From Cardiobacteriaceae bacterium (GTDB taxonomy: Bacteria; Pseudomonadota; Gammaproteobacteria; Cardiobacteriales; Cardiobacteriaceae), in contig JAUMXB010000004.1 of the NCBI GenBank assembly GCA_030529365.1, positions 62,001-126,000 on the forward strand: a DNA stretch of 64,000 nucleotides, given 5' to 3'. Shown here piece by piece: positions 1,041 through 62,959 of this stretch. A model generated the notes under the pieces. It saw only the letters and a list, made by a program, of their open reading frames with translations. It was not told the origin of the DNA and ran no database searches. How positions within the stretch are numbered: position 1 is the stretch's first letter; each line of letters opens with the position of its first letter. Position numbers and translations under genes: made by a program.

Positions 1041-1127
1041 ATTAAAAATAGTGATTTTTTACCATAATGAAGCACTTTCAATGAGAAAATTTATCGATAT
1101 AAGCGCTTTTTGATGGGAGTTTCTCAT
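1041..1127 (+). repeat. AAGCGCTT element, copy R1
   Basis: Order C-A-B-A-B: TTTTTTACCAT, a degenerate A box AAGCACTT (1070), GAGAAAATTTATC, A box AAGCGCTT (1101), and a decayed B box ending TTTCTCAT. The A boxes start 31 bp apart. The mismatched first A box marks this as an older or weaker copy. Confidence 0.85.
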
Positions 1128-1236
1128 GATGCGTAGGGTGGGTGTTAACCCGCCATTGCGAAGCGATTGTAGGTTGGTGGTGAGGCGAAGCCGAACCTCA
1201 ACATCAATTGGCATCGTTTGTTGGGGTTCACTCCGT

Positions 1237-1310
1237 GGTTATCGCATTTTGGCGGGCGGTTATCGCATTTCGGCAGGCGGTTATTGAGCTTGCCGAAATG
1301 CAATAACCGC
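1237..1310. repeat. 21-bp direct repeat with inverted third copy
   Basis: Two adjacent 21-bp units starting GGTTATCGCATTT (1237-1257 and 1258-1278; three differences) are followed by an inverted copy reading TGCCGAAATGCAATAACCGC (1291-1310). RNA from here could form a long hairpin. No function is evident. Confidence 0.7.
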
Positions 1311-1433
1311 TTGTCGAGATGTCCACCGGGCACCCATGAAAATGCGACTGCATTTTCATGGGAAACCCGCCAAGCTACGCTTTATTTATAACCGCATGGG
1401 TTTACACCCATCCTACGATGGTTTTATAAAATG

Positions 1434-1522
1434 GTTAAAAATAGCAGTTTTTTACCATTATAAAGCGCTTATCGTGAGAAATTTTCTCGCCATAAGCGCT
1501 TATGAATGAGAAAATTTCTCAT
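1434..1522 (+). repeat. AAGCGCTT element, copy R2
   Basis: Near-canonical full copy: TTTTTTACCAT, A box at 1463, GAGAAATTTTCTC, A box at 1494 (31 bp spacing), then TGAGAAAATTTCTCAT. Confidence 0.9.
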
Positions 1523-1604
1523 ATTGCCCTGCGGGCAACGGTGAGTTGACATCCACCACACCCAATGATGGGCTGAAGCTCACCTTACATGAAATTCATG
1601 AATT

Positions 1605-1688
1605 GATTGAAAATAGATGTTTTTTACCATCATGAAGCGCTTATGGTGAGAAAATTTATCGCAATAAGCGCTTGTTGATGAGAAAAAA
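1605..1688 (+). repeat. AAGCGCTT element, copy R3
   Basis: TTTTTTACCAT, A box at 1635, GAGAAAATTTATC, A box at 1666 (31 bp spacing), and a shortened terminal B box TGATGAGAAAA. It ends about 40 bp before the permease start, so it lies in the probable 5' leader of that gene. Confidence 0.9.
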
Positions 1689-1728
1689 TACCAAAACCAC
1701 CTGCCAATCCACAAACCCGAGGACTGCC

Positions 1729-2613: not shown

Positions 2614-2614
2614 G

Positions 2615-3439: not shown

Positions 3440-3442
3440 CTC

Positions 3443-6000: not shown

Positions 6001-6036
6001 CGATGATACTGTAGTTCATCTTATTCATCACAAGCC

Positions 6037-6086
6037 CAAAAATCATCATTTTTTACCACAATAAGCGCTTAAATATGGTAAAAAAG
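6037..6086. repeat. AAGCGCTT element, single-unit copy R4
   Basis: Minimal symmetrical form: TTTTTTACCA, one A box (6063), then ATGGTAAAAAA. It lies between the ATPase and ROK genes, 40 bp before the ROK start. Confidence 0.85.
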
Positions 6087-6126
6087 CATCATAAAAAAAC
6101 AAAAAAATGAATAAAGCGGAACAGAC

Positions 6127-7011
6127 ATGACACACTACCTCGGCATCGACGTCGGCGGCACGAAAATCCTCGCCGTCCTCGTCAACGAACAGGGCGACAT
6201 CCTCGCGGAAAGCCTTGCGTCCACCAGCCAGCAGGGCGAAGCGGCGCTGGCCGCGCAAATCGCCGGCATGGGGCAGGCGCTCGCGCGCGAGGCCGGTGTG
6301 GCCGTGCAGGCGGTTGGCATCGGCATGCCTGGTGCAGTCTGCCCGCGCAGCCAGTCGCTCTCCCTGATGCCGAACGTGGCGGGCATTGCCGGAACGGGCC
6401 TCATTGAAAAACTGCGCGCCGCCTTTGCCGTGCCCGTCGTGCTCGAAAACGACGTCAACGCCGCCGCGCTCGGCGAAGCCTGGCGCACGCAGGCGGGCAA
6501 TCCCTTCGTGTTCATGGCGCTGGGCACCGGCATCGGCATGGGGTTGGTGATCAACGGCGCGCTCTGCTGCGGCCATCATGGCGCGGCAGGAGAAATTGCC
6601 TGGTTGCCGATCGCTGATTCGCGGCCAACCCCCGCCCAATACCGCGCCGCCATGCTGGAAAGCCAGCTTGGCGGCAAGGCGTGGATCGATGACTATCATG
6701 CACGCGGTGGCACACAAGCCACCCTCGCTGCATGTTTTGCCGCGCCAGACAATATTTTTGCCGACATGCTTGCCGACAAAAGCGAACGCCTTGCGCTCGC
6801 CATCCTCGCCATTGCCGCCGTGATCGATCCCGAAACCGTCTGCCTCGGCGGCTCGATCGGTTTGCAGCCCGCGCTGCAAGAAGCGACGCGCGAAGCGCTT
6901 GCCCGCTACAGCGACCATCCGCCTGCCATCACCGCTGCCCGTCTCGGCGGCCATGCCGGGGCGATCGGTGCAGCAAGAGCGGGGATGCTGCATGGTAAAA
7001 AACAATCATGA
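6127..7011 (+). CDS. ROK family sugar kinase or regulator-like protein
   Basis: A 294-residue ROK protein: N-terminal ATP-binding LGIDVGGTKI, catalytic region VLENDVNAAALGE (Asp base) and phosphate-2 motif ALGTGIGMGLV. There is no N-terminal helix-turn-helix, so a kinase (glucokinase or N-acetylhexosamine kinase type) is more likely than a repressor. The usual zinc motif CxCGxxGCxE of many ROK kinases is not visible; an unusual linker IADSRPTPAQYRAAMLE replaces it. The final residues KKQS and the stop lie inside repeat copy R5. Context implies phosphorylation of the sugar brought in by the upstream importer. Substrate unproven. Confidence 0.85.
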   Translation: MTHYLGIDVGGTKILAVLVNEQGDILAESLASTSQQGEAALAAQIAGMGQALAREAGVAVQAVGIGMPGAVCPRSQSLSLMPNVAGIAGTGLIEKLRAAFAVPVVLENDVNAAALGEAWRTQAGNPFVFMALGTGIGMGLVINGALCCGHHGAAGEIAWLPIADSRPTPAQYRAAMLESQLGGKAWIDDYHARGGTQATLAACFAAPDNIFADMLADKSERLALAILAIAAVIDPETVCLGGSIGLQPALQEATREALARYSDHPPAITAARLGGHAGAIGAARAGMLHGKKQS

Positions 7012-7079
7012 TAAGCGCTTTGGATAGTAGTTTTTTATCATGATAAAGCGCTTATTTCGGTAAAAAATAGCGATTTTTA
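6991..7079. repeat. AAGCGCTT element, copy R5, overlapping the ROK stop codon
   Basis: C'-A-C-A-C' arrangement: ATGGTAAAAAA, A box (7013), TTTTTTATCATGAT, A box (7046, 33 bp spacing), GGTAAAAAATAG. It contributes the last codons and the stop of the ROK gene. Confidence 0.85.
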
Positions 7080-7161
7080 GACTGTTTGTGAATAAATCAA
7101 ATCCCACTATCATCTACGACGCCTGCAACACGATTTTCAAACCCGAGCTATCGGAGGAGCC

Positions 7162-9639: not shown

Positions 9640-9670
9640 GCGCAGTTGATGCGCGGCAAATTCGCCAGTG

Positions 9671-9704
9671 AAAAAAAATCGGCCACATTGTGGCCGATTC
9701 TTTT
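9671..9704. terminator. Probable bidirectional rho-independent terminator
   Basis: A 9-bp GC-rich stem ATCGGCCAC/GTGGCCGAT with loop ATT is flanked by eight A on the left and CTTTT on the right, placed 30 bp after the deacetylase stop. It could also stop transcription from the opposing ubiC side. Confidence 0.75.
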
Positions 9705-9841
9705 GATGCCGGGCGTTGCGACAGGCGTATGGACGCAGTCCGCGCAATCGGTTGATGCAGTGGATTCATAGATATGCGTATCGATGTTGCTGCCACAAGT
9801 TCTGAAAAGATAAAAAATTGTCCGTTCAGACAGAATTTTAT

Positions 9842-9919
9842 CAATTTTGCTTTTTTACTATCGACAAGCGCTTATTATGAGAAATTTTCTCACAGAAAGC
9901 GCTTAACATTGAGAAAAAC
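9842..9919 (+). repeat. AAGCGCTT element, copy R6
   Basis: Left border TTTTTTACTAT, A boxes at 9866 and 9897 (31 bp spacing) around GAGAAATTTTCTC, truncated final B box. Lies just downstream of ubiC. Confidence 0.85.
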
Positions 9920-9946
9920 TATCTATTTTTCTATTTTTTCTAAAAA

Positions 9947-11907: not shown

Positions 11908-11909
11908 AT

Positions 11910-13430: not shown

Positions 13431-13517
13431 CGAGAAATGATAAATTTTCTCATCAACAAGCGCTTGTCATGCAAAAAATTCTCATAATAAGCGCTTCATC
13501 ATGAGAAAATTTCTCAT
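13431..13517. repeat. AAGCGCTT element, copy R7
   Basis: B-A-B-A-B without a recognisable C border: GATAAATTTTCTCATC, A box 13458, a degenerate B, A box 13489 (31 bp spacing), TGAGAAAATTTCTCAT. Lies between tctC and the GNAT gene. Confidence 0.85.
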
Positions 13518-14946: not shown

Positions 14947-14962
14947 TGATTTCATAAAATCA

Positions 14963-15049
14963 TCCAAAATAGTTATTTTTTACCATGCACAAGCGCTTAT
15001 TGTGAGAAATTTTATCGTAATAAGCGCTTATCGATGAGAAAATTTCTCA
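14963..15049 (+). repeat. AAGCGCTT element, copy R8
   Basis: TTTTTTACCATGC, A box 14991, GAGAAATTTTATC, A box 15022 (31 bp spacing), TGAGAAAATTTCTCA. Begins 16 bp after the fabI stop. Confidence 0.9.
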
Positions 15050-15097
15050 ATCATTACTCATCACGTAGGGTGGGCTTCAGCCCGACATTTGTTTGAT

Positions 15098-19391: not shown

Positions 19392-19420
19392 AAAAAAGAA
19401 GCGCTTCCGAAGAAGCGCTT
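19392..19420 (-). terminator. Rho-independent terminator of phaA with UUCG loop
   Basis: On the - strand, AAGCGCTTC-TTCG-GAAGCGCTT is followed by CTTTTTT. Both stem arms contain the AAGCGCTT octamer of the intergenic repeat family; the loop is the stable cUUCGg tetraloop. Located 28 bp after the phaA stop. Confidence 0.88.
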
Positions 19421-20623: not shown

Positions 20624-20651
20624 GCGATTTCCTTCCTGTTTTTCATTTTTT

Positions 20652-20741
20652 GGTTAAATATAGTAATTTTTTCTCATCATGAAGCGCTTATGGCGGGAAA
20701 TTTTTGCACTATAAGCGCTTATGAGTGAGAAAATTTACCAT
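20652..20741 (+). repeat. AAGCGCTT element, copy R9 (between phaC and phaA)
   Basis: AATTTTTTCTCATC, A box 20682, GGGAAATTTTTGC, A box 20713 (31 bp spacing), TGAGAAAATTTACCAT. It abuts the phaC stop codon exactly. Confidence 0.88.
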
Positions 20742-23724: not shown

Positions 23725-23894
23725 TTGGTTCTCCGGTGATATATGAAAAAGCATGTGATCTGCCTCATGCAAGACGGTGCTTGCGCAGCCTTGCCGTGAG
23801 TTTACCCATATATTAAGCAGTGGTTATGATAGCCAGTATGTTTCAGCAAGACAAGGATTTGTCTTTTTTGTTTACACGAGTAATAGCTAAAAAC

Positions 23895-23970
23895 ATGGTA
23901 AAAAATCATTATTATAAGCGCTTAATATACGCTATTTTTACCAATAATATGCTTTCTTGTGAGAAAAAAT
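23895..23970. repeat. AAGCGCTT element, degenerate copy R10
   Basis: ATGGTAAAAAATC, A box 23916, ATTTTTACCAATA, a decayed second A position (about 23947) and GTGAGAAAAAATT. Lies in the phaB/dciA gap, between a promoter-facing end and a gene 3' end. Confidence 0.65.
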
Positions 23971-27262: not shown

Positions 27263-27601
27263 TGCCAGCACGGTAGATACGGTTAGGGCCTGTTGACAAT
27301 TGATACTTTGAAGCAACGAACCGTCAAATGAAGCAGCGGGTTAAAGCCCCTCCCCCTTGAGGGGGAGGGGTTGGGGACTCGAAGAGCTGCGGAGCAGAGA
27401 GGGGGATAGATAAAATCGCGCAGCGATGAAACTACCGATATTTCAAATACTTTTCTGAAACCCTGTAAACTCTGGTCGCGAATTGTCAACAGCCCCTAGC
27501 GCTGCAAGGCGCGTAACCGTACCTAAAAGACCGCATTTTGCGTCCAATGCTCAACAAGGTCGGTCACAAAGTGGCCGACCAACATTTTGATTCTCTTGCA
27601 C
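27263..27601. other. secA-mutT intergenic region with MITE-like insertion
   Basis: Contains a GC-rich repeat half (TAGATACGGTTA at 27274-27285), the 211-bp insertion 27286-27496, the other repeat half (TAGCGCTGCAAGGCGCGTAACCGTACC from 27497) and a GTCGGTCAC.../GTGGCCGACC hairpin. No gene; the small - strand frame is repeat DNA. Confidence 0.8.
27286..27496. mobile_element. MITE-like insertion, 211 bp, with 16-bp terminal inverted repeats
   Basis: Left end GGGCCTGTTGACAATT and right end AATTGTCAACAGCCCC match as inverted repeats at 15 of 16 positions. A TA dinucleotide stands on both sides (27284-27285 and 27497-27498). Removing the element and one TA rejoins an inverted repeat GGTTAGCGC/GCGCGTAACC of the GC-rich repeat family. 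The interior has a CCCCTCCCCC/GGGGGAGGGG hairpin (27347-27370) and no coding capacity. TA duplication and the end sequence suggest mobilisation by an IS630- or IS5-type transposase elsewhere; that is inference. Confidence 0.75.
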
Positions 27602-28030
27602 ATGACAGCCATACCTCAATCCAAACCCCCGGTGCGCGTCGTCGTCGCCATCATTGAAAACGCGCGCGGCGAATTTCTCATCGCCGAACGCCCGGAAAGC
27701 AAGCCCGCCGCCGGATTGTGGGAATTTCCGGGTGGCAAGGTGGAAGCCGGCGAGAGCGATCACCAAGCGCTTGCGCGCGAGCTCGAGGAAGAGCTTGGCC
27801 TTGACCTGCGCGAAGATACTTTCACACCCTTTGCCGATAACGCGAGCGGCCATCTGACCCTTGCGTTCTACTATCTGCGCGCCTCGCGCGAACTCTTTCC
27901 CGAAGGCCGCGAAGGCCAGCAATGGCGCTGGGTGGCGCGTGCCGGGCTGGGCGATTATCCCTTCCCTGCGCCGAACCGCATCGTGCTGGAAAAGCTCTTG
28001 CAGGAAGATGGTAAGAAATATCCATCATAA
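27602..28030 (+). CDS. mutT: Nudix hydrolase, MutT-type 8-oxo-dGTP diphosphatase
   Basis: A 142-residue Nudix protein with a complete Nudix box GGKVEAGESDHQALARELEEELG and the preceding KPAAGLWEFPGG typical of MutT. It cleans 8-oxo-dGTP from the nucleotide pool to prevent A:T to C:G mutations. The first ATG (27602) is used although no clear ribosome site precedes it; an in-frame TTG at 27587 is an alternative. Its stop codon lies inside repeat R11. mutT near secA is common in gammaproteobacteria. Confidence 0.92.
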   Translation: MTAIPQSKPPVRVVVAIIENARGEFLIAERPESKPAAGLWEFPGGKVEAGESDHQALARELEEELGLDLREDTFTPFADNASGHLTLAFYYLRASRELFPEGREGQQWRWVARAGLGDYPFPAPNRIVLEKLLQEDGKKYPS

Positions 28031-28090
28031 GCGCTTGTTATGGTGATTTTTTATCACGATAAGCGCTTTATAATGAGATAATTTCTCATA
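28023..28090. repeat. AAGCGCTT element, copy R11, overlapping the mutT stop
   Basis: A box 28029, TGGTGATTTTTTATCACG, A box 28061 (32 bp spacing), TGAGATAATTTCTCAT. The mutT TAA stop forms part of the first ATAAGCGCTT. Confidence 0.85.
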
Positions 28091-28387: not shown

Positions 28388-28509
28388 GTTTTTTGGAGAA
28401 CAGGTGCAGGTTTTTGAGTTGAATGGCTATATTGGGTGGCTTGTCGCGGATGATCCATAGCGCAAATCGCTGTGCAGATTTTCTCCCTAATTTATATCAA
28501 AAATAACGG

Positions 28510-28566
28510 AAAAATAGTTATTTTTTACCATCATGAAGCGCTTATTGTGGTAAAAATCGGTTATTT
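28510..28566. repeat. AAGCGCTT element, single-unit copy R12
   Basis: Minimal form TTTTTTACCATCATG, A box 28536, TTGTGGTAAAAA. Same layout as R4. Ten bp beyond it is the 3' end of the ABC adaptor gene. Confidence 0.85.
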
Positions 28567-28575
28567 TTGCATCTT

Positions 28576-29751
28576 TTATGGTGTTTCGCTGATCAGGCTG
28601 CCGTCGCGGAGCATGTCGTCGGGCTGGAGGATGACGCTATCGCCTTCTGCGAGGCCGCTGGTGATTTCCACCTGGGTGGCGGCGCGCAGGCCGGTTTCTA
28701 CCGGCGTGCGGCGGGCGCGGCCTTCTTCGATGCGCCACACCGCCCAGCCGTTTGCATCGCGGAAAAGTGCGCTGGCCGGGATGGCGAGGGCATTTTCCTT
28801 ACTGGCGGTGATGAATTCGATGTCCACGCGGTAGGCGTCGCCGAGGGTTTGCCATTGTTCCCGGGGGCTTGCGAGATCGAGCAGCACGCGGGTGCGCTGT
28901 TCTTCAACGCCCAGCGCCGAGACTTTGGTGAAACCGCCGGGTTCGATGCGGCTGACGGTGGCGGCAAGCGCTTCGCCGCCCCAGTGCAGGACGCGCGCGG
29001 GCGTGCCGGGCGCAAGGCGCACGGCGTCGTCAGAGAGAATGTCGGCTTCGAGTTCGAGTTCGCCGGGGTCGCCGGTTTCCATGAGGGGTTGCCCAGGGCT
29101 GACCGGGGTTTCGCTTTCGAGATGACGGCGCAGGAGCAGGCCGGCGGCAGGGGCTTTGACGTGGATGACGGTTTTTTGCCGACCGGGTTGGGTGTTGAGC
29201 TGGGCCTGTGCGGCTTCCACGCGCGCCTTGGCCATTTGTACTTCGGCGCGGGCGGCGGCGAGCTGGGCATCGGCATTTTCCAGTTGCGCCTGGGCGTGAT
29301 CGAGTTGCTGGCGGCTGGCGGCCTTGGCCTTGACGAGAGATTGCAGGCGGTGCTGTTCCTTGCGGGCGAGGGTTTGCGCGCTTTGCGCGGCATGGATGCG
29401 TTCTTCTGCTGCCTGTTGTGCGGCCTCGGCAGCGCGCAGTTCGGCTTCGCCGCGTTCGCGGCTGCGCGCGTCGAGCAGGGCGGCGGTGGCCGGTTCGATT
29501 TCGGCGACGGTTTGCCCGGCGGCGACGCTATCGCCGGGTTGCAGGGTGATGCGGCGCAGGGTGCCGGCAACGGGCGCGGCGATCTGGTAGCGCGCCTTGA
29601 CCCGGGTTTTGCCTTCTTCGCTGAAGGTTTGCTGCAAGGTGGTGGTTTGGGCCCGGGCGGTGGTGACGAATATCGGGCGTTCCCGGATGGCGAGGTAGGC
29701 CAGTCCGCCCGTCAGCGCGACAAGGATGAGGATGATGAGGGCTTTGCGCAT
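28576..29751 (-). CDS. HlyD/MacA-type periplasmic adaptor of an ABC exporter
   Basis: A 391-residue membrane-fusion protein: N-terminal anchor KALIILILVALTGGLAYLAI, a barrel-sandwich lipoyl-like half (VAGTLRRITLQPGDSVAAGQ), a long coiled coil rich in Ala/Gln/Glu (about residues 95-190), the second lipoyl half (VKAPAAGLLLRRHL) and a C-terminal beta barrel. It should bridge the inner-membrane ABC permease (29755-32118, 3 bp upstream) to an outer-membrane channel. No outer-membrane factor gene is nearby. Substrate unknown. Confidence 0.88.
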   Translation of the reverse strand: MRKALIILILVALTGGLAYLAIRERPIFVTTARAQTTTLQQTFSEEGKTRVKARYQIAAPVAGTLRRITLQPGDSVAAGQTVAEIEPATAALLDARSRERGEAELRAAEAAQQAAEERIHAAQSAQTLARKEQHRLQSLVKAKAASRQQLDHAQAQLENADAQLAAARAEVQMAKARVEAAQAQLNTQPGRQKTVIHVKAPAAGLLLRRHLESETPVSPGQPLMETGDPGELELEADILSDDAVRLAPGTPARVLHWGGEALAATVSRIEPGGFTKVSALGVEEQRTRVLLDLASPREQWQTLGDAYRVDIEFITASKENALAIPASALFRDANGWAVWRIEEGRARRTPVETGLRAATQVEITSGLAEGDSVILQPDDMLRDGSLISETP

Positions 29752-32118: not shown

Positions 32119-32156
32119 GGGGTGAAGTCCGTTATTCTTTTCATGATTCTATGTTT

Positions 32157-32241
32157 TATAGTTGATTTTTACCATTAATAAGCGCTTATAATGAGAAAAA
32201 AATAACGATACTAAGCGCTTGTTGTGGTAATTTTTACCATG
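32157..32241 (+). repeat. AAGCGCTT element, copy R13, supplying the ATPase stop
   Basis: ATTTTTACCATTAAT, A box 32180, GAGAAAAAAATAACG, A box 32213 (33 bp spacing), TGGTAATTTTTACCAT. The last codon (Trp) and TAA stop of the ABC ATPase gene lie in the terminal TTTTTACCAT (read on the - strand). Confidence 0.85.
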
Positions 32242-32956
32242 TAATCTCCTGCGCTGACAGGCGGTTGGCGTTTTCCGCTTCACGGATGATTTGGCCGTCC
32301 TGCATCCACAGGATGCGTTCGGCCATTTTGGCAATGTCGGCATTGTGGGTGATGATGACGGTGGTGGTGCCCATGTCGCGGTTGACGGTTTCCAGCGCTT
32401 CGAGGACGCGCACGCCGGTGGCGGAATCGAGTGCGCCGGTAGGTTCGTCGCAGAGCAGGACGACGGGGCGCTTGGCGATGGCGCGGGCAATGGCGACGCG
32501 CTGCTGTTCGCCGCCGGAGAGTTGCGCGGGGAAGTGGTCGAGGCGTTTTTCGAGGCCGACGAGGGCGAGCGCGTCGGCAGGGTCGAGCGGGTTTTTCGCG
32601 ATTTCGGTGACGATGGCGACGTTTTCGCGCGCGGTGAGGCTGGGGATGAGGTTGTAGAACTGGAAGACGAAGCCGACGTGTTCGCGGCGAAAGCGGGTGA
32701 GCTCGGCATCGCTGGCGTGGCTCAGGTTTTCACCGTGATACCACACTTCGCCGGCGCTTGGCGTATCGAGGCCGCCAAGGATGTTGAGCAGGGTGGATTT
32801 GCCGCTGCCGGAAGGGCCGAGCATGACGACGAATTCACCGCGATGAAGGGCGAGATCAATGCCGCGCAGGGCATGCACCTGCACTTCGCCCATTTGGTAG
32901 GTTTTGGTGAGATTTTCTGCGCGGAAGATGGGGGCGTGTCCGGTTGCGGAAGTCAT
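32234..32956 (-). CDS. LolD/MacB-type ABC transporter ATP-binding protein
   Basis: A 240-residue ATPase with Walker [19 protein letters not shown] loop [18 protein letters not shown], signature [15 protein letters not shown], Walker [15 protein letters not shown] and switch His in IITHNADI, all typical of the LolD/MacB/FtsE family. Pairs with the FtsX-type permease downstream. AAGGAGG sits 5 bp before ATG 32956. It starts 23 bp after the acidic 123-residue gene, so that gene probably belongs to the operon. Its 3' end reads into repeat R13. Confidence 0.93.
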
Positions 32957-33455: not shown

Positions 33456-34382
33456 ATGGCAAAGATTGGCGTAGTGGGAACGGGGTTTGTCGGCGCAAGT
33501 TCGGCCTATGCGATGACGCTGGCCGGTGTCGGCAACGATATGGTTCTGGTGGACGTGAACACTGCGCGCGCGCAGGCAGAAGCCGCGGATATTGGCCATG
33601 CTGCGTCGCTGTCGTCCGGGATGCGCGTGGTGGCTGGCGATTATGCCGCGCTGCAAGGGGCGGCCGTGGTGGTGATTGCTGCCGGGGTCAACCAGAAACC
33701 CGGTGAGTCGCGGCTGGATTTGCTGTCGCGCAATGTGCAGATTTTCCGCAGCATTATTCCCGAGATCGTGCGCCATGCCGAAGACGCCGTGGTGCTGGTG
33801 ACGACCAATCCGGTGGACATCATGACAGAGGTGACGAAATGCCTGCATCCCCATCCCGAACGGGTACTGGGTTCGGGCACGCTGCTCGATACCGCGCGTT
33901 TCCGCACGTTGCTCGGTCGCGAATGCGGCATCAGCCCGCGCTATATTCACGCGAACGTGCTGGGCGAACATGGCGATAGCGCGGTGCTGTGCTGGGATGG
34001 CGCGCGTCTTGCCGGTTTGCCGCTCGCCGAATTCATGGGCGCGGCGCTCGACGAGGAGAAGAAAAAGTCCATCGAGGCGGGCGTGCGCGATGCCGCGGCC
34101 ACGATCATTGCCGGCAAGCAGGCAACGTATTACGGCATTGGTGCGGCAGTGAGCAAGATTGTTTCCGGCATTCTCGGCGACAAGCGCGGGGTATATACCG
34201 TGTCGGCGGAAAGCCCGTATGGCGTGTGTCTGAGTTTGCCGCGGGTGGTGGGCGCTGGTGGCGTGTGCCGCACGGTGATGCCGCATTTGTCCGTGGCAGA
34301 GCAGGCGGAGATGCAGGCCAGTGCCGAGGTGCTGAAACAGTCTTTGCTGGGCGTGGTGGAAAACGGCAAGCTGCTGGTGTGA
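33456..34382 (+). CDS. ldh: L-lactate dehydrogenase
   Basis: A 308-residue NAD-dependent dehydrogenase: N-terminal GTGFVG loop, Gln80 and Arg86 in the substrate loop GVNQKPGESRLD (Gln at this position marks lactate rather than malate dehydrogenases) and the catalytic His in VLGEHGDS. It interconverts pyruvate and L-lactate. ATG 33456 has a strong AGGAGGTGG; the longer frame upstream is rejected. The stop codon is fused to repeat R14. Lactate production fits a fermentative or microaerophilic lifestyle. Confidence 0.92.
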   Translation: MAKIGVVGTGFVGASSAYAMTLAGVGNDMVLVDVNTARAQAEAADIGHAASLSSGMRVVAGDYAALQGAAVVVIAAGVNQKPGESRLDLLSRNVQIFRSIIPEIVRHAEDAVVLVTTNPVDIMTEVTKCLHPHPERVLGSGTLLDTARFRTLLGRECGISPRYIHANVLGEHGDSAVLCWDGARLAGLPLAEFMGAALDEEKKKSIEAGVRDAAATIIAGKQATYYGIGAAVSKIVSGILGDKRGVYTVSAESPYGVCLSLPRVVGAGGVCRTVMPHLSVAEQAEMQASAEVLKQSLLGVVENGKLLV

Positions 34383-34463
34383 TGAGAAAATTTCTCATCA
34401 TGAAGCGCTTATGGTGAGAAGTTTTCTCATTATAAGCGCTTATGGTTGGTAAAAAATCACTAT
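34381..34463 (-). repeat. AAGCGCTT element, copy R14 (reverse orientation)
   Basis: TGAGAAAATTTCTCATCATG, A box 34403, GAGAAGTTTTCTC, A box 34434 (31 bp spacing), TTGGTAAAAAATC. It begins within the ldh stop. Confidence 0.9.
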
Positions 34464-34478
34464 ATTTTGATGTTTCAT

Positions 34479-34507
34479 AAAAAAAGCGCTTCACAAGGAA
34501 GCGCTTT
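34479..34507 (-). terminator. Rho-independent terminator of the lpd gene
   Basis: On the - strand AAAGCGCTTC, loop CTTGT, GAAGCGCTTT followed by T residues. As with the phaA terminator, both arms carry the AAGCGCTT octamer. Located 20 bp after the lpd stop. Confidence 0.85.
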
Positions 34508-46500: not shown

Positions 46501-49203
46501 GAAGAAGCAACGCGGCCAGTGCAGGCAGAAGCTCCGGCAGCAGCAGTTCCGGAAGTGGAAGGGGTCTTTGGTGAAGGGTTTGACAGTGATATTGATCCTG
46601 TATTGGTAGATATCTTCAGTGATGAAGCGGAAGAATTGCTGCAAGCAACCGAGACACATCTGGAGAGCGACATTGCCAATCCTGGAGTAGCTGAAGAATT
46701 CAAGCGGACGATGCACACGCTGAAAGGAGGCGCGCGTCTGGTTGGCTTGACTGCCATGGGCGATACATCGCACCTGATGGAATCGGTAATGGAAAAAGTG
46801 CCGGAATTGGGCGAAGGCAAGATACGGCAGGCGAAAACGCTGCTGCAAGCAGGATATGAGAGTTTGCGTACAATGCTGGATGCTGTGCTGCGCCAGGAAA
46901 TGCCCAAGCCTGCCGATGCTGTGAACCATGCGTTGGAGTTGTTTGTCCGCGAGGGTCGCTTTGAAACGCCGAAAGTGGACACGCCTGTGCAAACGCCTGC
47001 GACGTCTGCGGCAGATACCGCATTGGCACCTGAAACTGTATCCGTAGCGGAGCAAAGCCCGGCGGATGAAGCCGTTGCGGGCGAGCCGGTGGTTGCTGCT
47101 GTGCCAGGCGGTGAAGCGGAAGCGTCCATTGCGGCCGGGGACAAAGCCGAGCCTGCCGTGCAGTCAGGCAAATCCGCTGCAACTGCGCAGGAGGCGGCTG
47201 TTCAAGAGTCTGTAACCGCAACAGAGGCACAGTCAGCACCTGCACCTTCCGCCAGTATGGAGAAGGCGGCAGAAACTATGGGTTCTCCCGCATCGCAGCC
47301 TGATGACACTGTGCAGGACAAGCCGGAAAGCACGGCCGCAGAAAAAGAGAAATCGGCACAGGACCAGGATCGTATGTCCGATGTGTCGCGTTTTGTTCGC
47401 GTGGATTCGCAGCTGCTGGATGAGATTATTGCCATGGTGGGCGAGGCTTCCATCATGCGTTCGCGTATCGAGAACCTTTCTGCCGGTGTCGAGTTCAACA
47501 TTGGCGAATTGACCCGCATTTCCACGCGGATTGCCGAACAGATGCGGCGATTGGACAATGAAACCGAAGCACAGATGTTGTTCCGTCGCGAGAAACACGG
47601 CGGTGATGACGAGCATTTCGATCCGCTGGAAATGGACCGCTTTACCGAAATCCAGCAGCTGTCGCGCCAGTTGTCCGAAGCCATTGACGACTTGAAAAAC
47701 GTTCAGGGCACACTGGCAAACGACAACACGGTATTGCGAAACCTCGCCAGCCAGCAGGGCATTATCCAGCGCAGTTTGCAGGATCGCCTGCTTACCACGC
47801 AATTGATGCGTTTTGATGTCAACGAACCGCGCTTGAAGCGTCTGGTACGTCAAACGGCGAAAACGCTGGGCAAGGAAGTGAATTTCGTGCTGGAAGGCGG
47901 GCAGGTGGAATTGGAGCGCCGCCTGCTCGAAGACGTGCTGCCCGCTTTGGAGCACATGATCCGCAATGCCATTGCCCACGGTATCGAAGCACCGGCGCAG
48001 CGTCGCCAGGCAGGCAAGCCGGAAATCGGCACGATCAAGTTGGTCATCGCCGCGCAATCTTCTGAAATCACCATGCGCCTCATTGACGACGGACAGGGTT
48101 TCGATTACGGGCGCATCCGCAGCAAGGCACGCGAAAAAGGCATACTCGACGAAGCGCAGGCCAACGATACTCACTATCTCAACAGCCTGGTCCTGCGTTC
48201 CGGTTTCTCAACCGCGCAGTCGCTGACCCAGATTTCCGGGCGCGGTGTGGGCATGGATGTCGTGAACGAAATGGTCAAACAGCGTCGTGGCCGCCTGAGT
48301 GTGGATTCCCTGCCGGGCAAAGGTACGGAATTCACCGTAGTCATGCCGTTTTCGATGAGTATCGCCGAGGTGCTGCTGGTGGATATCGGCGGACGCACCT
48401 ATGCGGCGCCGATGAGCTCGATTACGGCCGTCAGTCAGGTCAGCCGTACCGACCTGCAGGAAAGCCTCTCCGGCGAAGTGGTTTACCACCGTTATGACGA
48501 GCGCGATTACCGCCTCTATGTGCTTGGCAGCTATTTCGAGCCGGGCAATTACGAGTTTGCGCCGGAAGCGCACCAGTTGCCGGTACTGTTCATTGATTCC
48601 GGTGAAGAGGCGGTGGCCTTCCACGTGGACCGCATCCTCAACCGCCTGGAGATCATCGTCAAGAACGTCAACCGCCAGGTGCTCAACATTCCGGGCATTT
48701 CCGGTGCAACCATTCTCGGCGATGCCAGTGTGGTGCCGGTGCTCGAGCTCATGGATCTTGCCCGTCGCATCGGCAGCATCGTGCCGCACAAAGAGGAAGA
48801 AATCCTCGAGGAAAGCACCGAGAAGCGCATTCTGGTGGTCGATGATTCCGTCACCATGCGCAAAGTCTCTACCCGTTTGCTCGAGCGCAACCACTTTATC
48901 GTGGAAACCGCCAAAGACGGTCTGGATGCCATCGAGGTGCTCCAGCACTTCAAGCCCGATCTCATCATGCTCGACATCGAAATGCCGCGCATGGACGGCT
49001 TTGAGTTTGCCGCGCACGTCCGCCAGAATTCCGACGTGCCCAACGTGCCGATCGTCATGGTCACCTCGCGTACCGGCGACAAGCACCGCGAGCGCGCCGG
49101 CCAGATTGGTGTGCAGGGCTACCTCGGCAAGCCGTACCGTGAGGATATCCTGATGGAAACCCTGAACAGCTTATTGAATACCACAACAGGTGTAACCTCA
49201 TGA
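40507..49203 (+). CDS. chpA: Giant hybrid chemotaxis histidine kinase ChpA
   Basis: A 2898-residue hybrid kinase (Pseudomonas ChpA about 2470). The N-terminal about 600 residues are degenerate Hpt/FimL-like helices. Canonical Hpt histidines are His650 (FHTLKGSGRTVGY), His1889 (MHTLKGSARMAGY) and His2070 (MHTLKGGARLVGL). Residues about 780-1030 and 1410-1700 are acidic, low-complexity linkers; about 1037-1401 holds four related helical repeats I do not recognise. From about 2290: dimerisation helix, ATPase with N box around Asn2487 (RNAIAHG), DDGQGF and SGRGVGMDVV, a CheW domain, and a receiver with Asp2823 (LIMLDIEMPRMDG). Base composition rises sharply in GC at about 47.4 kb. AGAGG precedes the ATG. 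Confidence 0.93.
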   Translation: MSTEISKQILARLQDEMSRNISSIKQKISEWLDHPQAGGLEFLRDSMGEISGGLSMLNRPEAAELSNEIMAVIVALQKAVSDAGDTKPADFDSAGAEVASAILILDDYIDRLDEKQRDDGEIIREIIRVLQSLKEDTTSRSSFSAPPKITKDTYQALAAKVSEVIETSRNQIEQYAHDPEKPFNASALISHNKNLINMFAVLDLKEPQLLLQKINQMLVEQLSESQWIDVAEAMILVEETLNQVQSNRSPVVSTYAEAVAEQTRHSRELEVNNLVRDTGEVAFRFFEAMRKKVVHDEKIHAVQGWRDAALRLAHYSAIAELVELLPLAEVLKNMGKSYAAISLQPSVDANVFASVIDSLVGAEYIFFELSESGHPSKQDIVFLRESVENIGRYIPVTPEAERLFAGFIDTDIESEHEEREDLSGAFSNILSGSLDTLDRFGAPVDMQATADGIFDEMAEETLSPSMVHVASVGEVTPGKSISSLDDVTIQGNIVQEKAVRDALPSLASASEQETMEEKEDATPSGTNLTAQTESEGGISALPQSGELSAFDVAEPAVEQGAQVSGEEQAVTAFVPFFRGKSMTDLDVLPIPDSKKDFVNAHADAVMDDEIREFFVEELAELIELVNKAYPQWLESPESQMLTTELRRAFHTLKGSGRTVGYESLGEFAWQHEQLLNRVLDNHYRANKLVQSTVGDAIDLLNILKNQDEFFEHQGALLQQAAVAEAVREALMQDREMGESQGSFVQISRQLRLHEEQLAGRFMLANEKSTFLSEKDVVQTVGDSVISHVAPDEPVMVSYATDAIPGEFALSDETYEQGENWPDESASVDVRDNEQQDLETVSQAFPESPGEVEIVPETSDAVLFDLVGKDAEETVESALQKESDHEDDWIPPFSLADDTEEISEEFPQQAEAVPAAENVLPFELLPHGAESATTSVESPDMGEEEALVADGLFSLVGEDELFEHSAPHEKVESVAVAGASKEDFLEFLDEALPAESPAESLPQSSRVTDEYSGAPVTVIVPELTSSNDTVPGPDARMTAKIVKTLQRGLGDIPEAERTDAAISAAMEETIKRQLAQEQFDDPARLAELAKAVREEISMADATLARQAEDILSRVAESAKANDESVEIDFTDMDFLQELAPIDPRAEQVVRMLEQGLAERADDARLSAALLKHQLSNEVLSNSSKLDALLAEINAILNGMSVTTDDYETSDDFAASVEQISQIIEEGLALGSLSADDKEALAAAVRQQLTYPPASLQDSDALKEAVGARLEQNDILSSEDVQDVLQGAFIRVAHDTEAGAGDLSVQDAAARLPLSPVDALQALDDAAVSTLRKTLQKALGSGHVDESVAAGIGMALAHQWQQNNLPLDDAAFAAIAARLRHDCGQDSDDVEVVLQALAKRLGVTPAGKIDDSPLVSFERKEDDSSLQAGDWLDEVVANDADDQMASRGETLLWDSTTDIEHTASAAENLADEALFALDVGGTEDVASDALSDSFALAEAPDEEAVVEAGQEAGSSVEPDNVPLTSPMTHEALVSDMPDDIDLQTEEMFVAQAAEKAGEAEFSFDEEKTASELFSEPVRVSSVADTAFTEDTINLPFDASALPACEETGEHLPVSGLSEDMLHPVFSETAADDESVSDSIPEESGSEWVDMAENMSQPAVSMRPSAAAQRLSRELEELSQHPALNDAVNRSSSVAASNARSGPAVFLHAVDRFETLSQQVENSNDPDAINELIESVYDIEDSIEPETAPDWIWRMLDAVEQLLLMYKYQGAAVSLSAASILRQSAHLIEHHKDQENEDEALETINSLISARQERSKISSAQQDAPLAGSTPGFASANYSEELVQDPNANSVLSETFLDEAMALFGRGQLDAEQWDEDLSRVNILDRMRRDMHTLKGSARMAGYMAIGDLTHAVESLIDNILDGYSEASPRAAAILSGAMWQGMIMLDNIRDGYLPQIDPYILNNISDYLKQPLPYPEVAEREKEAKELQRQEAEDAQFRALEEATRPVQAEAPAAAVPEVEGVFGEGFDSDIDPVLVDIFSDEAEELLQATETHLESDIANPGVAEEFKRTMHTLKGGARLVGLTAMGDTSHLMESVMEKVPELGEGKIRQAKTLLQAGYESLRTMLDAVLRQEMPKPADAVNHALELFVREGRFETPKVDTPVQTPATSAADTALAPETVSVAEQSPADEAVAGEPVVAAVPGGEAEASIAAGDKAEPAVQSGKSAATAQEAAVQESVTATEAQSAPAPSASMEKAAETMGSPASQPDDTVQDKPESTAAEKEKSAQDQDRMSDVSRFVRVDSQLLDEIIAMVGEASIMRSRIENLSAGVEFNIGELTRISTRIAEQMRRLDNETEAQMLFRREKHGGDDEHFDPLEMDRFTEIQQLSRQLSEAIDDLKNVQGTLANDNTVLRNLASQQGIIQRSLQDRLLTTQLMRFDVNEPRLKRLVRQTAKTLGKEVNFVLEGGQVELERRLLEDVLPALEHMIRNAIAHGIEAPAQRRQAGKPEIGTIKLVIAAQSSEITMRLIDDGQGFDYGRIRSKAREKGILDEAQANDTHYLNSLVLRSGFSTAQSLTQISGRGVGMDVVNEMVKQRRGRLSVDSLPGKGTEFTVVMPFSMSIAEVLLVDIGGRTYAAPMSSITAVSQVSRTDLQESLSGEVVYHRYDERDYRLYVLGSYFEPGNYEFAPEAHQLPVLFIDSGEEAVAFHVDRILNRLEIIVKNVNRQVLNIPGISGATILGDASVVPVLELMDLARRIGSIVPHKEEEILEESTEKRILVVDDSVTMRKVSTRLLERNHFIVETAKDGLDAIEVLQHFKPDLIMLDIEMPRMDGFEFAAHVRQNSDVPNVPIVMVTSRTGDKHRERAGQIGVQGYLGKPYREDILMETLNSLLNTTTGVTS
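43615..44709 (+). repeat. Four-fold protein repeat inside chpA (residues about 1037-1401)
   Basis: Related helical units start near residues 1040 (IVKTLQRGLGDIPEAERTDA), 1146 (VVRMLEQGLAERADDARLSA), 1216 (EQISQIIEEGLALGSLSADD) and 1327 (STLRKTLQKALGSGHVDESV). Each has a pattern of hydrophobic-x-x-hydrophobic-L-x-x-G/A-L, an acidic turn, a second helix AA...L..QL and a third rich in Ala/Leu. Units 1, 3 and 4 add a further amphipathic helix (AEDILSRVAES, VQDVLQGAFIRV, VEVVLQALAKRL). Divergence between units means this is old. Confidence 0.75.
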
Positions 49204-50742: not shown

Positions 50743-50829
50743 AATGAGAAAATTTATCACCAATAAGCGCTTATTGCGATAAATTTTCTCACTATAAGCG
50801 CTTATTGATGGTAAAAATACACTATTTTT
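50743..50829 (-). repeat. AAGCGCTT element, copy R15 (reverse orientation)
   Basis: TGAGAAAATTTATCACC, A box 50765, GATAAATTTTCTC, A box 50796 (31 bp spacing), GATGGTAAAAATAC. It ends about 38 bp before the hydrolase start, inside its probable promoter/leader. Confidence 0.9.
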
Positions 50830-50867
50830 CGTTAAAATTTGAAATAATCAATAACCAGGGAGTGCAA

Positions 50868-53346: not shown

Positions 53347-53358
53347 TTTTTCCCGCGG

Positions 53359-57990: not shown

Positions 57991-57991
57991 A

Positions 57992-58073
57992 ATGGGAAAA
58001 TTTCTCATCAATAAGCGCTTATTGTGAGAAAATTTCTCATGATAAGCGCTTATTGGTGGTAAAAAATAGCCAT
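57992..58073 (-). repeat. AAGCGCTT element, copy R16 (between murF and mraY)
   Basis: GGGAAAATTTCTCATCA, A box 58013, GAGAAAATTTCTC, A box 58044 (31 bp spacing), TGGTGGTAAAAAATAG. The element starts 1 bp after the murF stop and lies inside the dcw cluster. Confidence 0.9.
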
Positions 58074-58112
58074 AAAAACGAGTTTAATAGTAAAAATAAT
58101 TTCTGGATTATT

Positions 58113-58139
58113 AGCCCCTCCCTCACGGGGGAGGGGCTT
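58113..58139 (+). terminator. GC hairpin between murF and mraY, possible attenuator
   Basis: AGCCCCTCCC, loop TCAC, GGGGGAGGGGCTTT. It resembles the CCCCTCCCCC/GGGGGAGGGG hairpin inside the MITE at 27347. The short T run makes complete termination doubtful, and mraY follows 42 bp later. Confidence 0.45.
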
Positions 58140-58180
58140 TGCAAGCGCCCGGATTGGCGAGAAAGGATAAAGGAGTTCAC

Positions 58181-59263: not shown

Positions 59264-59270
59264 GGGAATT

Positions 59271-60602: not shown

Positions 60603-61783
60603 AAAATCCTGTCGCCGATTTTCGCCGCAACCAGAGCCGCCAGCAACCGCGCTGGCACGGCCTTGCCTTTCCCGATATCTGGCTGATGATCGCCTGGTTT
60701 GCGCTGGTGGTGATCGGCATGGTGATGGTGACGTCCGCGTCCATGTCGGAAGCGGTGAGCCACAATGCCGGGCCTTTATATTTCAGCTACCGCCAGATGG
60801 CCTACTATGTGCTGGGGCTGGTGATGGCCTATGTGGTTTTCCAGTTGCCGACCAACGTCTATTACGAGCATGGCAGCAAATTGCTGGTGGTGACTTTTTT
60901 GATGCTGTTCCTCGTGTTCGTGCCGGGCATCGGCACGGCAGTAAACGGCGCGCACCGCTGGATCAATTTCCGTGTTTTCAATTTCCAGGTGGGCGAGCTC
61001 GTCAAGCTGGTGATGATCCTCTATGCCGCCGCCTATTTGCAGCGCAACAATTACCGAATTGAAAACAGCTGGATGCCCATGTTTGGTTTGCTCGGCGTGG
61101 GCGGAATCTTTTCCCTCGCGCTCCTCAAGCAGCCTGATTTCGGCACCACGTTCGTGATGATGGCAACGCTGATGGGCATGTTGTTCATGGCGGGCGTTTC
61201 CATCAAGCGCTACAGCCTGCTGGTGGGCGTGGTGAGCCTGCTCATGGTGGCCGCGCTGCTGATGGCGCCGTACCGGCGCGCGCGCCTCACTTCTTTCCTC
61301 GATCCCTGGGACAAGCAGTTCGACCAGGGCTACCAGCTGGTCAATTCCCTGATTGCCGTGGGGCGCGGTGGCGTCTCCGGCGTGGGCCTGGGCGAGAGCG
61401 TGCAAAAGCATCAGTATCTGCCGGAAGCGCATACAGACTTCATTTTTGCCATCATCAGCGAGGAGCTGGGGCTGATCGGCGCGCTGGTGGTGATGGGGCT
61501 GCTCGCGCTCGTCGTCTGGCGCGCCTTTGCCATCGGCAAGCTCGCCGACAAGATGCGCAAGCGCTTTGCCAGCTATATTGCCTACGGCATTGGTCTGTGG
61601 ATCGGCTGCCAGTCGCTTATCAATATTGGCGTTGCCACCGGAGCGCTGCCGACCAAGGGGCTGACCCTGCCCTTTATCAGCTATGGCGGCAGTTCCGTGC
61701 TGATTTTGTTCATGGCGCTCGCCATTCTCTTGCGCATCGATGCGGAAAGCCGTTTTCAGGCGAAGCGCGAGGGCGTGCTGTGA
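60575..61783 (+). CDS. ftsW: Septal peptidoglycan polymerase FtsW
   Basis: A 402-residue SEDS protein with about ten membrane segments; GAHRWINF, KQPDFGTTFVMMATL, GVGLGESVQKHQYLPEAHTDFIFAI (in pieces) and LPFISYGGSSVL are SEDS signatures, including the catalytic Asp region. Polymerises lipid II at the septum with FtsI. Start overlaps murD; stop overlaps murG (GTGA). Confidence 0.97.
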   Translation: MPTRSAATLKNPVADFRRNQSRQQPRWHGLAFPDIWLMIAWFALVVIGMVMVTSASMSEAVSHNAGPLYFSYRQMAYYVLGLVMAYVVFQLPTNVYYEHGSKLLVVTFLMLFLVFVPGIGTAVNGAHRWINFRVFNFQVGELVKLVMILYAAAYLQRNNYRIENSWMPMFGLLGVGGIFSLALLKQPDFGTTFVMMATLMGMLFMAGVSIKRYSLLVGVVSLLMVAALLMAPYRRARLTSFLDPWDKQFDQGYQLVNSLIAVGRGGVSGVGLGESVQKHQYLPEAHTDFIFAIISEELGLIGALVVMGLLALVVWRAFAIGKLADKMRKRFASYIAYGIGLWIGCQSLINIGVATGALPTKGLTLPFISYGGSSVLILFMALAILLRIDAESRFQAKREGVL

Positions 61784-62871
61784 ATCTCGCGGGCAAAACG
61801 GTTCTGATGATGGCAGGCGGCACCGGCGGGCACGTCTATCCCGCCCTGGCCGTCGCACAGGCGGCGCGCGAGGCGGGGGCGGAAGTGCATTGGCTCGGCA
61901 ACGCCCAGGGCTTTGAAGGGCGCAAGGTGCCGGCCTACGGCTTTGCCTTTCATGACATTGCCGTGCGTGGCCTGCGCGGCAATGGGCTGGCCGGCTGGCT
62001 GCAAGCGCCGCTCATGCTCACGCGTGCCATTCGCGCGGCGCGGCGCGTGATCAAAAGCATTCGTCCCGATGTGGTGATCGGCATGGGCGGCTTTGCCGCA
62101 GGCCCGGGCGGGGTTGCAGCGAAGATGGCGGGCGTGCCGCTCGTCATTCATGAGCAAAATGCAGTGGCAGGGCTGACCAACCGTCTCCTTGCGCGCGTGG
62201 CCGATGTGGTGCTGTTGGCCGATGGCCGCGCAGCCGCGCGGCTGGGCGGCAAGGGCGAAGTGACCGGCAATCCGGTGCGCGCCGCCTTTGCCGATGTGCC
62301 CGAGCCAGCCGTGCGTTATGGCGCGCGGCAGGGCAGGATTCGTCTGCTGGTGCTGGGCGGTTCACAGGGTGCGAAGGCTTTGAATGCGCTGGTGCCGCAG
62401 GCGCTGGCGCGCTTGCCGGAAGATGCGCGGCCGGAGGTGCTGCATCAGGCGGGCGAACGCGGGCTGCAAGAAGCGCAAAGCGCTTATGCCGAATGCGGCG
62501 TGGCGGCGGAAGTCGTGCCCTTTATGGAAGACATGGCGAGCGCCTATGCCGATGCCGACTGGGTGATTGCCCGTTCGGGAGCCTTGACCGTGGCGGAAAT
62601 CGCGACGGTTGGCCTGCCCGCGCTTTTCGTGCCGTTCCCCCATGCGGTGGACGATCACCAGACGGCCAACGCGCAGACGCTGGTCGATGCCGGTGCCGCA
62701 CAAGTGGTGCAACAGGCGGATCTCACGGCGGAAAGGCTTGCCGGCATCATCGCCGCGCATGGCGATCGCGCGGCATTGCTCGCCAGGGCCGAAGCGGCGC
62801 GGCGAGTGTCGCACGACGAAGCGCTTGCCCGCATCATGGATGCGGTTGGAAATGTAATTTTCAAAAAATAG
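61780..62871 (+). CDS. murG: Lipid II synthase GlcNAc transferase
   Basis: A 363-residue GT-B glycosyltransferase: MMAGGTGGHVYPALAVA, GMGGFAAGPGGVAA, HEQNAVAGLTNR and VLGGSQGAKALN, with RSGALTVAEIA in the donor domain. Adds GlcNAc to lipid I. The GTG start at 61780 overlaps the ftsW stop (GTGA). The final codons read into the border of repeat R17. Confidence 0.96.
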   Translation: MNLAGKTVLMMAGGTGGHVYPALAVAQAAREAGAEVHWLGNAQGFEGRKVPAYGFAFHDIAVRGLRGNGLAGWLQAPLMLTRAIRAARRVIKSIRPDVVIGMGGFAAGPGGVAAKMAGVPLVIHEQNAVAGLTNRLLARVADVVLLADGRAAARLGGKGEVTGNPVRAAFADVPEPAVRYGARQGRIRLLVLGGSQGAKALNALVPQALARLPEDARPEVLHQAGERGLQEAQSAYAECGVAAEVVPFMEDMASAYADADWVIARSGALTVAEIATVGLPALFVPFPHAVDDHQTANAQTLVDAGAAQVVQQADLTAERLAGIIAAHGDRAALLARAEAARRVSHDEALARIMDAVGNVIFKK

Positions 62872-62959
62872 CCAAGAATAGCAGTTTTTTACCACCATTA
62901 AGCGCTTATCGTGATAAATTTTCTCATAATAAGCGCTTATGAATGAGAAATTTTATCAC
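62871..62959 (+). repeat. AAGCGCTT element, copy R17 (between murG and murC)
   Basis: AATAGCAGTTTTTTACCACC, A box 62900, GATAAATTTTCTC, A box 62931 (31 bp spacing), TGAGAAATTTTATCA. It occupies nearly the whole 100-bp murG-murC gap and ends 12 bp before murC. Confidence 0.9.

What the first reader, a model, noticed from the sequence alone, without database searches (positions are those of the whole stretch)
1041..62959. New-looking family of two-box palindromic intergenic elements with fixed 31-bp phasing
Seventeen copies in 64 kb share palindrome AAGCGCTT (A), a palindrome-like TGAGAAAATTTCTCA (B) and borders TTTTTTACCAT/ATGGTAAAAAA (C). In R1, R2, R3, R6, R7, R8, R9, R14, R15, R16 and R17 the two A boxes start exactly 31 bp apart (R1 with a one-base variant first box); R5, R11 and R13 show 32-33 bp. 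The 23 bp between boxes vary in sequence but not in length, and changes in the left and right halves of B are not compensated, so RNA pairing is not obviously what is conserved. 31 bp is about three helical turns, which would put two protein dimers on one DNA face. I know of no described family with this layout, but cannot search.
Basis: partly seen in the sequence, partly recalled or inferred. Interest (0 to 1): 0.85.

Follow-up and report, generated by a model that had tools for sequence, protein, structure and literature searches.

The report
Curved-DNA repeat family between genes
Hundreds of copies of a roughly 100-letter element sit between the genes of this bacterium, and their letters are spaced so that the DNA should bend smoothly in one direction, which suggests a docking or wrapping site for a chromosome-shaping protein that has not yet been identified.

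Summary
In detail: 17 copies in the window, boxes 31 bp apart in 10 exact pairs plus one variant. Genome-wide there are 463 two-box pairs and 446 in a sister species. In the sampled part 81 of 94 close neighbours are exactly 31 bp apart.

One-box copies, not chosen for spacing, show the same phasing to about 50 bp on each side. The nine most curved segments of the window (predicted) are all elements.

A boxes are kept while linkers drift; opposite arms of B do not covary. Position and direction are largely shared between the two species. Short divergent gaps are avoided.

Best reading: a genus-specific family of architectural, protein-wrapped DNA sites; gyrase or an Lrp/AsnC-type protein are untested candidates. 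Rfam gives no match. A distant genus repeats the same 8-bp core 4,391 times, apparently without the rest of the element.

The parts
1028..1129 (+). R1: two-box element, first box a one-base variant (AAGCACTT at 1070); extent and direction by eye
1421..1522 (+). R2: two-box element C-A-B-A-B, 31 bp
1593..1694 (+). R3: two-box element, 31 bp
6017..6116 (.). R4: one-box element, A/T tracts on both sides; absent from the orthologous gap of the sister species
6991..7100 (.). R5: two boxes 33 bp apart; overlaps the 3' end of the preceding gene
9824..9925 (+). R6: two-box element, 31 bp
13437..13517 (.). R7: two-box element with B at both ends, 31 bp
14949..15050 (+). R8: two-box element, 31 bp
20640..20741 (+). 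R9: two-box element, 31 bp; cap is a variant (script label half-B), direction by eye
23870..23965 (.). R10: one-box element
28004..28090 (.). R11: two boxes 32 bp apart; weakest predicted curvature of the 17
28490..28585 (.). R12: one-box element; strongest predicted curvature in the window
32140..32250 (.). R13: two boxes 33 bp apart
34382..34483 (-). R14: two-box element, 31 bp, between convergent genes (my gene calls)
50744..50845 (-). R15: two-box element, 31 bp
57992..58093 (-). R16: two-box element; three boxes at the same place in the sister species, same direction
62858..62959 (+). R17: two-box element; present at the same place and in the same direction in the sister species

Best explanation
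A genus-specific family of intergenic DNA elements (about 100 bp) that are intrinsically curved and act as docking or wrapping sites for an abundant architectural (nucleoid or topology) protein. Shown by sequence: A/T tracts recur every 10.5 bp on one helical face, with the GCGC boxes half a turn away; the A boxes are conserved while linkers drift; most copies compared keep their place and direction between two species; copies avoid short gaps between divergent genes. Predicted: curvature. Inferred: a protein wraps the element and reads the AAGCGCTT and TGAGAAAWTTTCTCA boxes as double-stranded DNA, the 31-bp step being three turns of that wrap. Candidates, neither tested: DNA gyrase, whose E. 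coli motif has a central core with arms phased at 10.75 bp, or an Lrp/AsnC-type protein, which reads 15-bp semipalindromes two or three turns apart and can wrap about 100 bp.
For: Tract phasing of 112 two-box copies peaks at 10.5 bp (score 3.56; linker-randomised maximum 2.07 in 30 runs; dinucleotide shuffles maximum 1.17 in 30), and 221 of 224 GCGC boxes lie 0.4-0.6 turn from the tracts. In 103 one-box intergenic copies, not chosen for spacing, tracts lie about 16, 27, 37 and 47 bp from the box centre (413 tracts, Rayleigh nR2 173; 151 boxes in genes: 118 tracts, nR2 3.5), symmetric to about 50 bp in the 53 copies with half-sites on both sides. The nine most curved 92-bp segments of the window are elements, 15 of the top 30 overall. 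In 92 caps found without using the A box, 85 have a perfect box. Four orthologous pairs in register: A 0 of 64, B 10 of 60, inner linkers 19 of 32 changed. Orthologous gaps agree in 15 of 17 (9 both, 6 neither, p = 0.0037). No positive covariation in the arms of B. No orientation bias against transcription, 33:33 in 66 tandem gaps. Paper analogies: gyrase motif (PMC6379681, three sections read, the discussion in its first part); Lrp wrapping (PMC10201364, PMC2995911, passages only).
Against: No binding protein was identified. Curvature is predicted only, with wedge parameters recalled from memory. The two-box set was chosen for 31-bp spacing, so part of its phasing is built in; the one-box copies are the independent test, and their control (boxes in genes) is poorer in A/T tracts. 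R10, R11, R13 and R14 are not among the window's 2% most curved positions, and 15 of the top 30 curved segments are not elements. Positions next to the A boxes show some mirror pairing (z 3.3 and 2.8 in G000, 3.4 in G001) and RNA folds are stable, so an RNA role is not excluded. The A-box zero is partly ascertainment, since pairs were found by exact match. The deficit in divergent gaps is not significant above 200 bp: this fits promoter avoidance and gives no support to a supercoil-sink role.
Confidence: 0.5

Rival explanations
1. A non-autonomous mobile or selfish intergenic repeat (MITE-, REP- or BOX-like) that once spread and settled where it does least harm; the phasing reflects only the sequence of the founder.
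For: Hundreds of copies, polar unit, number of boxes that changes between species, preference for non-promoter gaps, strong matches only in one genus among the 40 genomes searched, with 100 candidates scored per genome. Longest words shared by the two flanks are slightly commoner than in shuffles (6 bp: 33 against 25 of 112; 7 bp or more: 13 against 10).
Against: Copies shared between species keep their A boxes although inner linkers differ at about half of positions. No clear target-site duplication. The single strong Y1 transposase of this genome has no A box in the 3,360-bp locus around it.
Confidence: 0.22
2. An RNA element: a bidirectional terminator or 3'-end stabilising hairpin, like REP elements or inverted uptake-sequence pairs.
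For: Often next to stop codons (median 29 bp in 77 tandem gaps of G000). Six window stretches fold as RNA with z from -3.7 to -8.6. Some mirror pairing next to the A boxes.
Against: Arms of B do not covary, linkers diverge between species, no T run directly after the hairpin in the consensus (by eye), both orientations equally common, and copies lie in gaps that I read, by eye only, as murF-mraY and murG-murC. Exact 31-bp phasing is not needed for a hairpin.
Confidence: 0.13
3. The AAGCGCTT box is a DNA uptake word and the elements are its intergenic carriers.
For: 1,674 copies in 2.3 Mb, a density like that of known uptake words (recalled). If the family is Cardiobacteriaceae (my guess), a 1985 title in a reference list reports identification of Cardiobacterium hominis by genetic transformation. 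Another genus of the family carries the same core 4,391 times.
Against: Copies in genes are few (0.25 per kb), in part explained by codon context, and by eye 7 of 23 are kept in the sister species, roughly what 85% identity would leave of any 8-mer. An uptake word does not need phased A/T tracts or the B and C boxes. No comparably dominating word was seen in the other family members sampled, one of which (G011) was sampled too thinly to tell.
Confidence: 0.08
4. The elements are strong DNA gyrase sites specifically, analogous to E. coli BIME-2 (a narrower form of the best explanation).
For: One-box copies have a central core and symmetric A/T-phased arms to about 50 bp; the E. coli motif has a 36-bp core and arms of period 10.75 bp (PMC6379681).
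Against: Not tested. The element is shorter than the 130-bp motif and its first A/T peak (16 bp) lies inside the E. coli core. Placement shows no significant dependence on gene orientation once gaps are longer than 200 bp.
Confidence: 0.12

Closest known systems
BOX elements of Streptococcus pneumoniae (PMC3049150, passages)
   Same: Composite intergenic repeats: end modules with a variable number of inner modules; number of modules differs between strains or species.
   Different: Sequence relation not tested; different phylum. BOX elements run from 67 to 637 bp; here boxes are 8 and 15 bp on a 31-bp lattice with phased A/T tracts.
REP / BIME elements (PMC3733652, PMC12306157, passages)
   Same: Hundreds of palindromic intergenic copies, often near gene ends.
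   Different: No conserved GTAG or CGTC tag, no A box near the Y1 transposase, no arm covariation in B; longer, with strict helical spacing.
E. coli DNA gyrase motif and BIME-2 sites (PMC6379681, three sections)
   Same: Central core with arms of helically phased A/T and G/C; indirect readout proposed there.
   Different: The E. coli motif is degenerate and 130 bp; here discrete conserved boxes and about 100 bp. Binding untested.
Lrp/AsnC-family wrapping sites (PMC10201364, PMC2995911, passages)
   Same: 15-bp semipalindromic sites two or three helical turns apart; about 100 bp wrapped by three dimers in one archaeal case.
   Different: B matches the recalled E. coli Lrp consensus at only 8 of 15 positions, an A-centred control at 7; the conserved A box has no counterpart; hundreds of near-identical copies.
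HIP1 and DNA uptake words (PMC4390886, PMC3630211, passages)
   Same: A short word, palindromic in HIP1, hugely over-represented in the genome.
   Different: In this genus the word is concentrated in structured intergenic elements; the resemblance fits the other genus (G003) better.

Membership tests
REP / BIME | conserved GTAG or CGTC tag at one end of a short hairpin | tested here: not met
   consensus of 112 oriented elements shows no such tag
REP / BIME | RAYT gene flanked by the repeats | tested here: not met
   one strong Y1_Tnp hit in G000, no A box in its 3,360-bp locus
REP / BIME | extragenic, high copy number | tested here: met
   463 pairs; 180 of 182 paired boxes of the G000 sample outside called genes
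REP / BIME | compensated stem changes (stem-loop) | tested here: inconclusive
   no positive covariation in the arms of B; some mirror pairing next to the A boxes
MITE | target-site duplication at the ends | tested here: not met
   shared flank words close to shuffles: 7 bp or more in 13 of 112 against 10 expected
BOX-type composite repeat | end modules with variable number of inner modules | tested here: met
   element-bearing gaps with 1 to 5 A boxes; box number differs at orthologous sites
BOX-type composite repeat | sequence similarity to pneumococcal boxA/B/C | not tested
   not aligned
DNA uptake sequence | word spread through genes and intergenic DNA above codon-context expectation | tested here: inconclusive
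   91 against 18 in genes, but related words raised too
DNA uptake sequence | preferential uptake of DNA bearing the word | not testable with these tools
   needs transformation assays
Strong gyrase site | helically phased A/T arms around a core | tested here: met
Strong gyrase site | gyrase binding or cleavage | not testable with these tools
   needs Topo-Seq or EMSA
Lrp/AsnC wrapping site | 15-bp semipalindromes at two or three turns | tested here: met
   B boxes about 31-32 bp apart
Lrp/AsnC wrapping site | match to the family's consensus; binding by such a protein | tested here: inconclusive
Intrinsic terminator | hairpin followed directly by a T run | tested here: not met
   consensus read by eye in both directions
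Rfam families | score above a family's gathering cut-off | tested here: not met
   0 matches in the window

The most novel reading that the evidence does not exclude
The AAGCGCTT box is read by one conserved chromosome protein in this family of bacteria. One genus (G003) scatters it as a bare 12-bp palindrome roughly every 360 bp through genes and spacers; the window's genus has built it into curved, wrapped 100-bp docking sites between genes. That would be a DNA-encoded, nucleosome-like positioning system in a gammaproteobacterium, with two evolutionary states to compare.
Probability: 0.12. Interest if true: 0.9.

Novelty: new variant of a known kind. Interest (0 to 1): 0.58.

Why it matters
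Bacterial intergenic repeats are common but rarely come with a physical rationale. Here the spacing rule has one: tracts and boxes are placed as intrinsic bending would require, in hundreds of copies, and shared between species. That makes a testable case of DNA shape encoded genome-wide, and a direct route (pull-down with a phased and a de-phased copy) to the protein that reads it.

Tried and rejected
RNA structure as the main constraint: stable folds but no covariation in the arms of B and diverging linkers. REP/RAYT origin: no tag, no A box near the single strong Y1 transposase. MITE insertion: no clear target-site duplication. LacI-type reader (AAGCGCTT resembles LacI-family operator cores, recalled): PF00356 is found only in G000 and G001 among 12 genomes, but in both the gene lies beside a frame I read by eye as a PfkB-type sugar kinase, and in G000 also near one I read as a sugar-transport permease, so a local regulator is more likely; G003 lacks it although rich in the word. 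It is not excluded. Methyltransferase explanation (HIP1-like): no C5 methylase (PF00145) in G000 or G001; the one in G003 lies beside a frame that I read by eye as a restriction-type nuclease; other methylase families were not searched. Uptake word: see rivals. Supercoil-sink placement: not supported in gaps above 200 bp. Phylogeny of G000 against G003 by SecA: unresolved (the first tree, used a wrong frame for G000 and is void). Naming the organism: one search found nothing and the best 80 of 589 SecA relatives kept reach at most 62% identity; that the family is Cardiobacteriaceae is a guess from memory.

Limits: gene calls are home-made. G001 contigs were partly picked because they carried element hits, so G001 densities and gap frequencies are biased upwards. 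Model R1 was built from 60 of the 112 oriented elements (one search printed 70 and I passed 60 of them). Relatives were sampled by stretches, not whole. The two C-anchored sites without a recognisable box (4 and 6 mismatches) are counted among its 92. Paper searches showed only part of long lists: 25 of 405, 15 of 41, 10 of 41, 8 of 15.
Full report
OBSERVATION. Ten have exact boxes 31 bp apart, R1 has a one-base variant first box, and R5, R11 and R13 are 32-33 bp, as written. The window lies in a 2.30-Mb genome (G000) held in 32 contigs; names are withheld. The two-box pattern occurs 463 times genome-wide and never in its reversed form; the sister species G001 has 446. AAGCGCTT itself occurs 1,674 times against 54 for the reversed word; in the nine other family members besides G001 and G003 it occurs 4 to 235 times. 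In a 437-kb sample (window plus 20 stretches) 81 of 94 neighbours within 60 bp are exactly 31 bp apart; in G001 81 of 104.

ANATOMY. Of 183 two-box copies (30-32 bp apart) in the two samples, 2 lie in arrays; of the other 181, 93 have a C cap at one end and a full B palindrome at the other, and 29 more a C cap and a half B; 10 have two caps and 1 two full B palindromes; the rest are mixed or unlabelled by the script. The element is thus usually polar. The logo of 112 oriented 31-bp copies reads, from cap to B end: TTTCATAAAAT-nnnn-AAAAATAGTGATTTTTTACCAT-n3-AAGCGCTT-n4-TGAGAAAWTTTCTCA-n4-AAGCGCTT-n5-TGAGAAAATTTCTCA, about 102 bp. One-box and multi-box versions exist: in G000, 37 of 118 element-bearing gaps have one box, 75 two, 6 three to five.

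PHASING. A/T tracts (A(n)T(m), at least 4) in the 112 copies are phased with a best period of 10.5 bp; the score is 3.56 against at most 2.07 in 30 runs with linker lengths randomised and 1.17 in 30 dinucleotide-shuffled runs. The GCGC centres lie 5.17 of 10.5 bp from the tract phase, 221 of 224 within 0.4-0.6 turn. Because these copies were picked for 31-bp spacing, the independent test is the 103 intergenic one-box copies: tracts stand at 16, 26-28, 36-38 and 46-48 bp from the box centre (413 tracts, nR2 = 173). The 151 boxes inside genes do not show this (118 tracts, nR2 = 3.5), though their surroundings hold fewer tracts. In the 53 one-box copies with half-sites on both sides, A/T content oscillates symmetrically to about 50 bp and is then flat. 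A wedge model (parameters recalled) predicts end-to-end shortening of 0.143 against 0.052 for shuffles and 0.065 for linker-randomised versions. In the window the nine most curved 92-bp segments, and 15 of the top 30, overlap elements; R11 (13% of positions as curved or more), R13 (5%), R14 (2.4%) and R10 (2.2%) stand out less or not at all.

CONSERVATION. Of 92 caps found without using the A box, 85 have a perfect box, 4 one mismatch, 1 two mismatches and 2 no recognisable box. In four orthologous two-box elements in register, A boxes differ at 0 of 64 positions (partly ascertained), B at 10 of 60, outer half-sites and cap at 41 of 172, outer linkers at 14 of 32 and inner linkers at 19 of 32. 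Of 178 gaps, 17 had an orthologous gap in the G001 sample: 9 carry an element in both, 6 in neither, 1 in each alone (Fisher p = 0.0037). In 8 of the 9 shared gaps a direction can be read, partly by eye, and it is the same. The number of boxes can differ.

PLACE. Elements are intergenic: 180 of 182 paired boxes in the G000 sample lie outside called genes. They are common in tandem and convergent gaps and rare in short divergent ones: 5 of 38 divergent against 76 of 164 other gaps of 50-199 bp (p = 0.0001), but 23 of 39 against 109 of 156 at 200-800 bp (p = 0.25; both species pooled). This fits promoter avoidance and gives no support to a supercoil-sink placement. In tandem gaps the cap faces the upstream gene in 33 and the downstream gene in 33.

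WHAT READS IT. Mirror positions within B do not covary; some positions next to the A boxes do (z 3.3 and 2.8 in G000, 3.4 in G001). RNA folds of six window stretches are stable, but linkers drift between species. I therefore favour double-stranded DNA reading. Two known kinds of wrapping fit parts of the anatomy. The E. coli gyrase motif is 130 bp, with a 36-bp centre and arms of 10.75-bp period (PMC6379681; three sections read, the discussion in its first part). Lrp/AsnC-type proteins read 15-bp semipalindromes two or three turns apart and can wrap about 100 bp with three dimers (PMC10201364, PMC2995911, passages). Neither was tested; B matches a recalled Lrp consensus at 8 of 15 positions, an A-centred control at 7.

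DISTRIBUTION. A sequence-only model finds strong elements in G000 and G001 only, among 40 genomes, 100 candidates at most being scored in each. G003, another genus of the family, gives 22 weak hits at E up to 0.05; the three of those loci that I read show the bare A box without the C-A-B-A-B layout. G003 has AAGCGCTT 4,391 times in about 1.6 Mb, mostly as part of CAAAGCGCTTTG and with no other flanking signal, 244 in called genes of the sample against 18 expected. That 12-mer occurs 0-6 times in each of 369 genomes of the class, G003 not among them. The other family members sampled show no comparably dominating word; G011 was sampled too thinly to tell.

NOVELTY. Rfam has no match in the window. 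Paper searches on the family name and repeats, the box, uptake sequences and curved or palindromic intergenic repeats listed nothing on it; only the listed titles and abstract starts were seen, four of the lists were cut, and the library lacks most subscription journals. I file it as a new variant of a known kind: a modular intergenic repeat family with a helical-phasing rule.

Noticed in passing
G003 (L040-L046, L134, L149, L151): CAAAGCGCTTTG: the core AAGCGCTT occurs 4,391 times in about 1.6 Mb, in genes and spacers; one-mismatch neighbours of the core are hardly enriched and some are depleted. Uptake-word-like or HIP1-like; unexplained.
   Followed up: partly
window 27282-27499: Another dispersed repeat of about 215 bp with many partial matches in G001.
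   Followed up: no
window 34484-34507 and 19399-19420: AAGCGCTT boxes 14-15 bp apart that look like stems of ordinary terminators, not elements.
   Followed up: no
window 40507-49203: A 2,898-aa open reading frame. No element lies between R14 and R15, a stretch of about 16 kb.
   Followed up: no
intergenic gaps of G001 (e.g. L121, L107): Other short repeats (GTAGGGTGGG-like and CCCTCTCCC-like) fill orthologous gaps around the elements and differ between the species.
   Followed up: no
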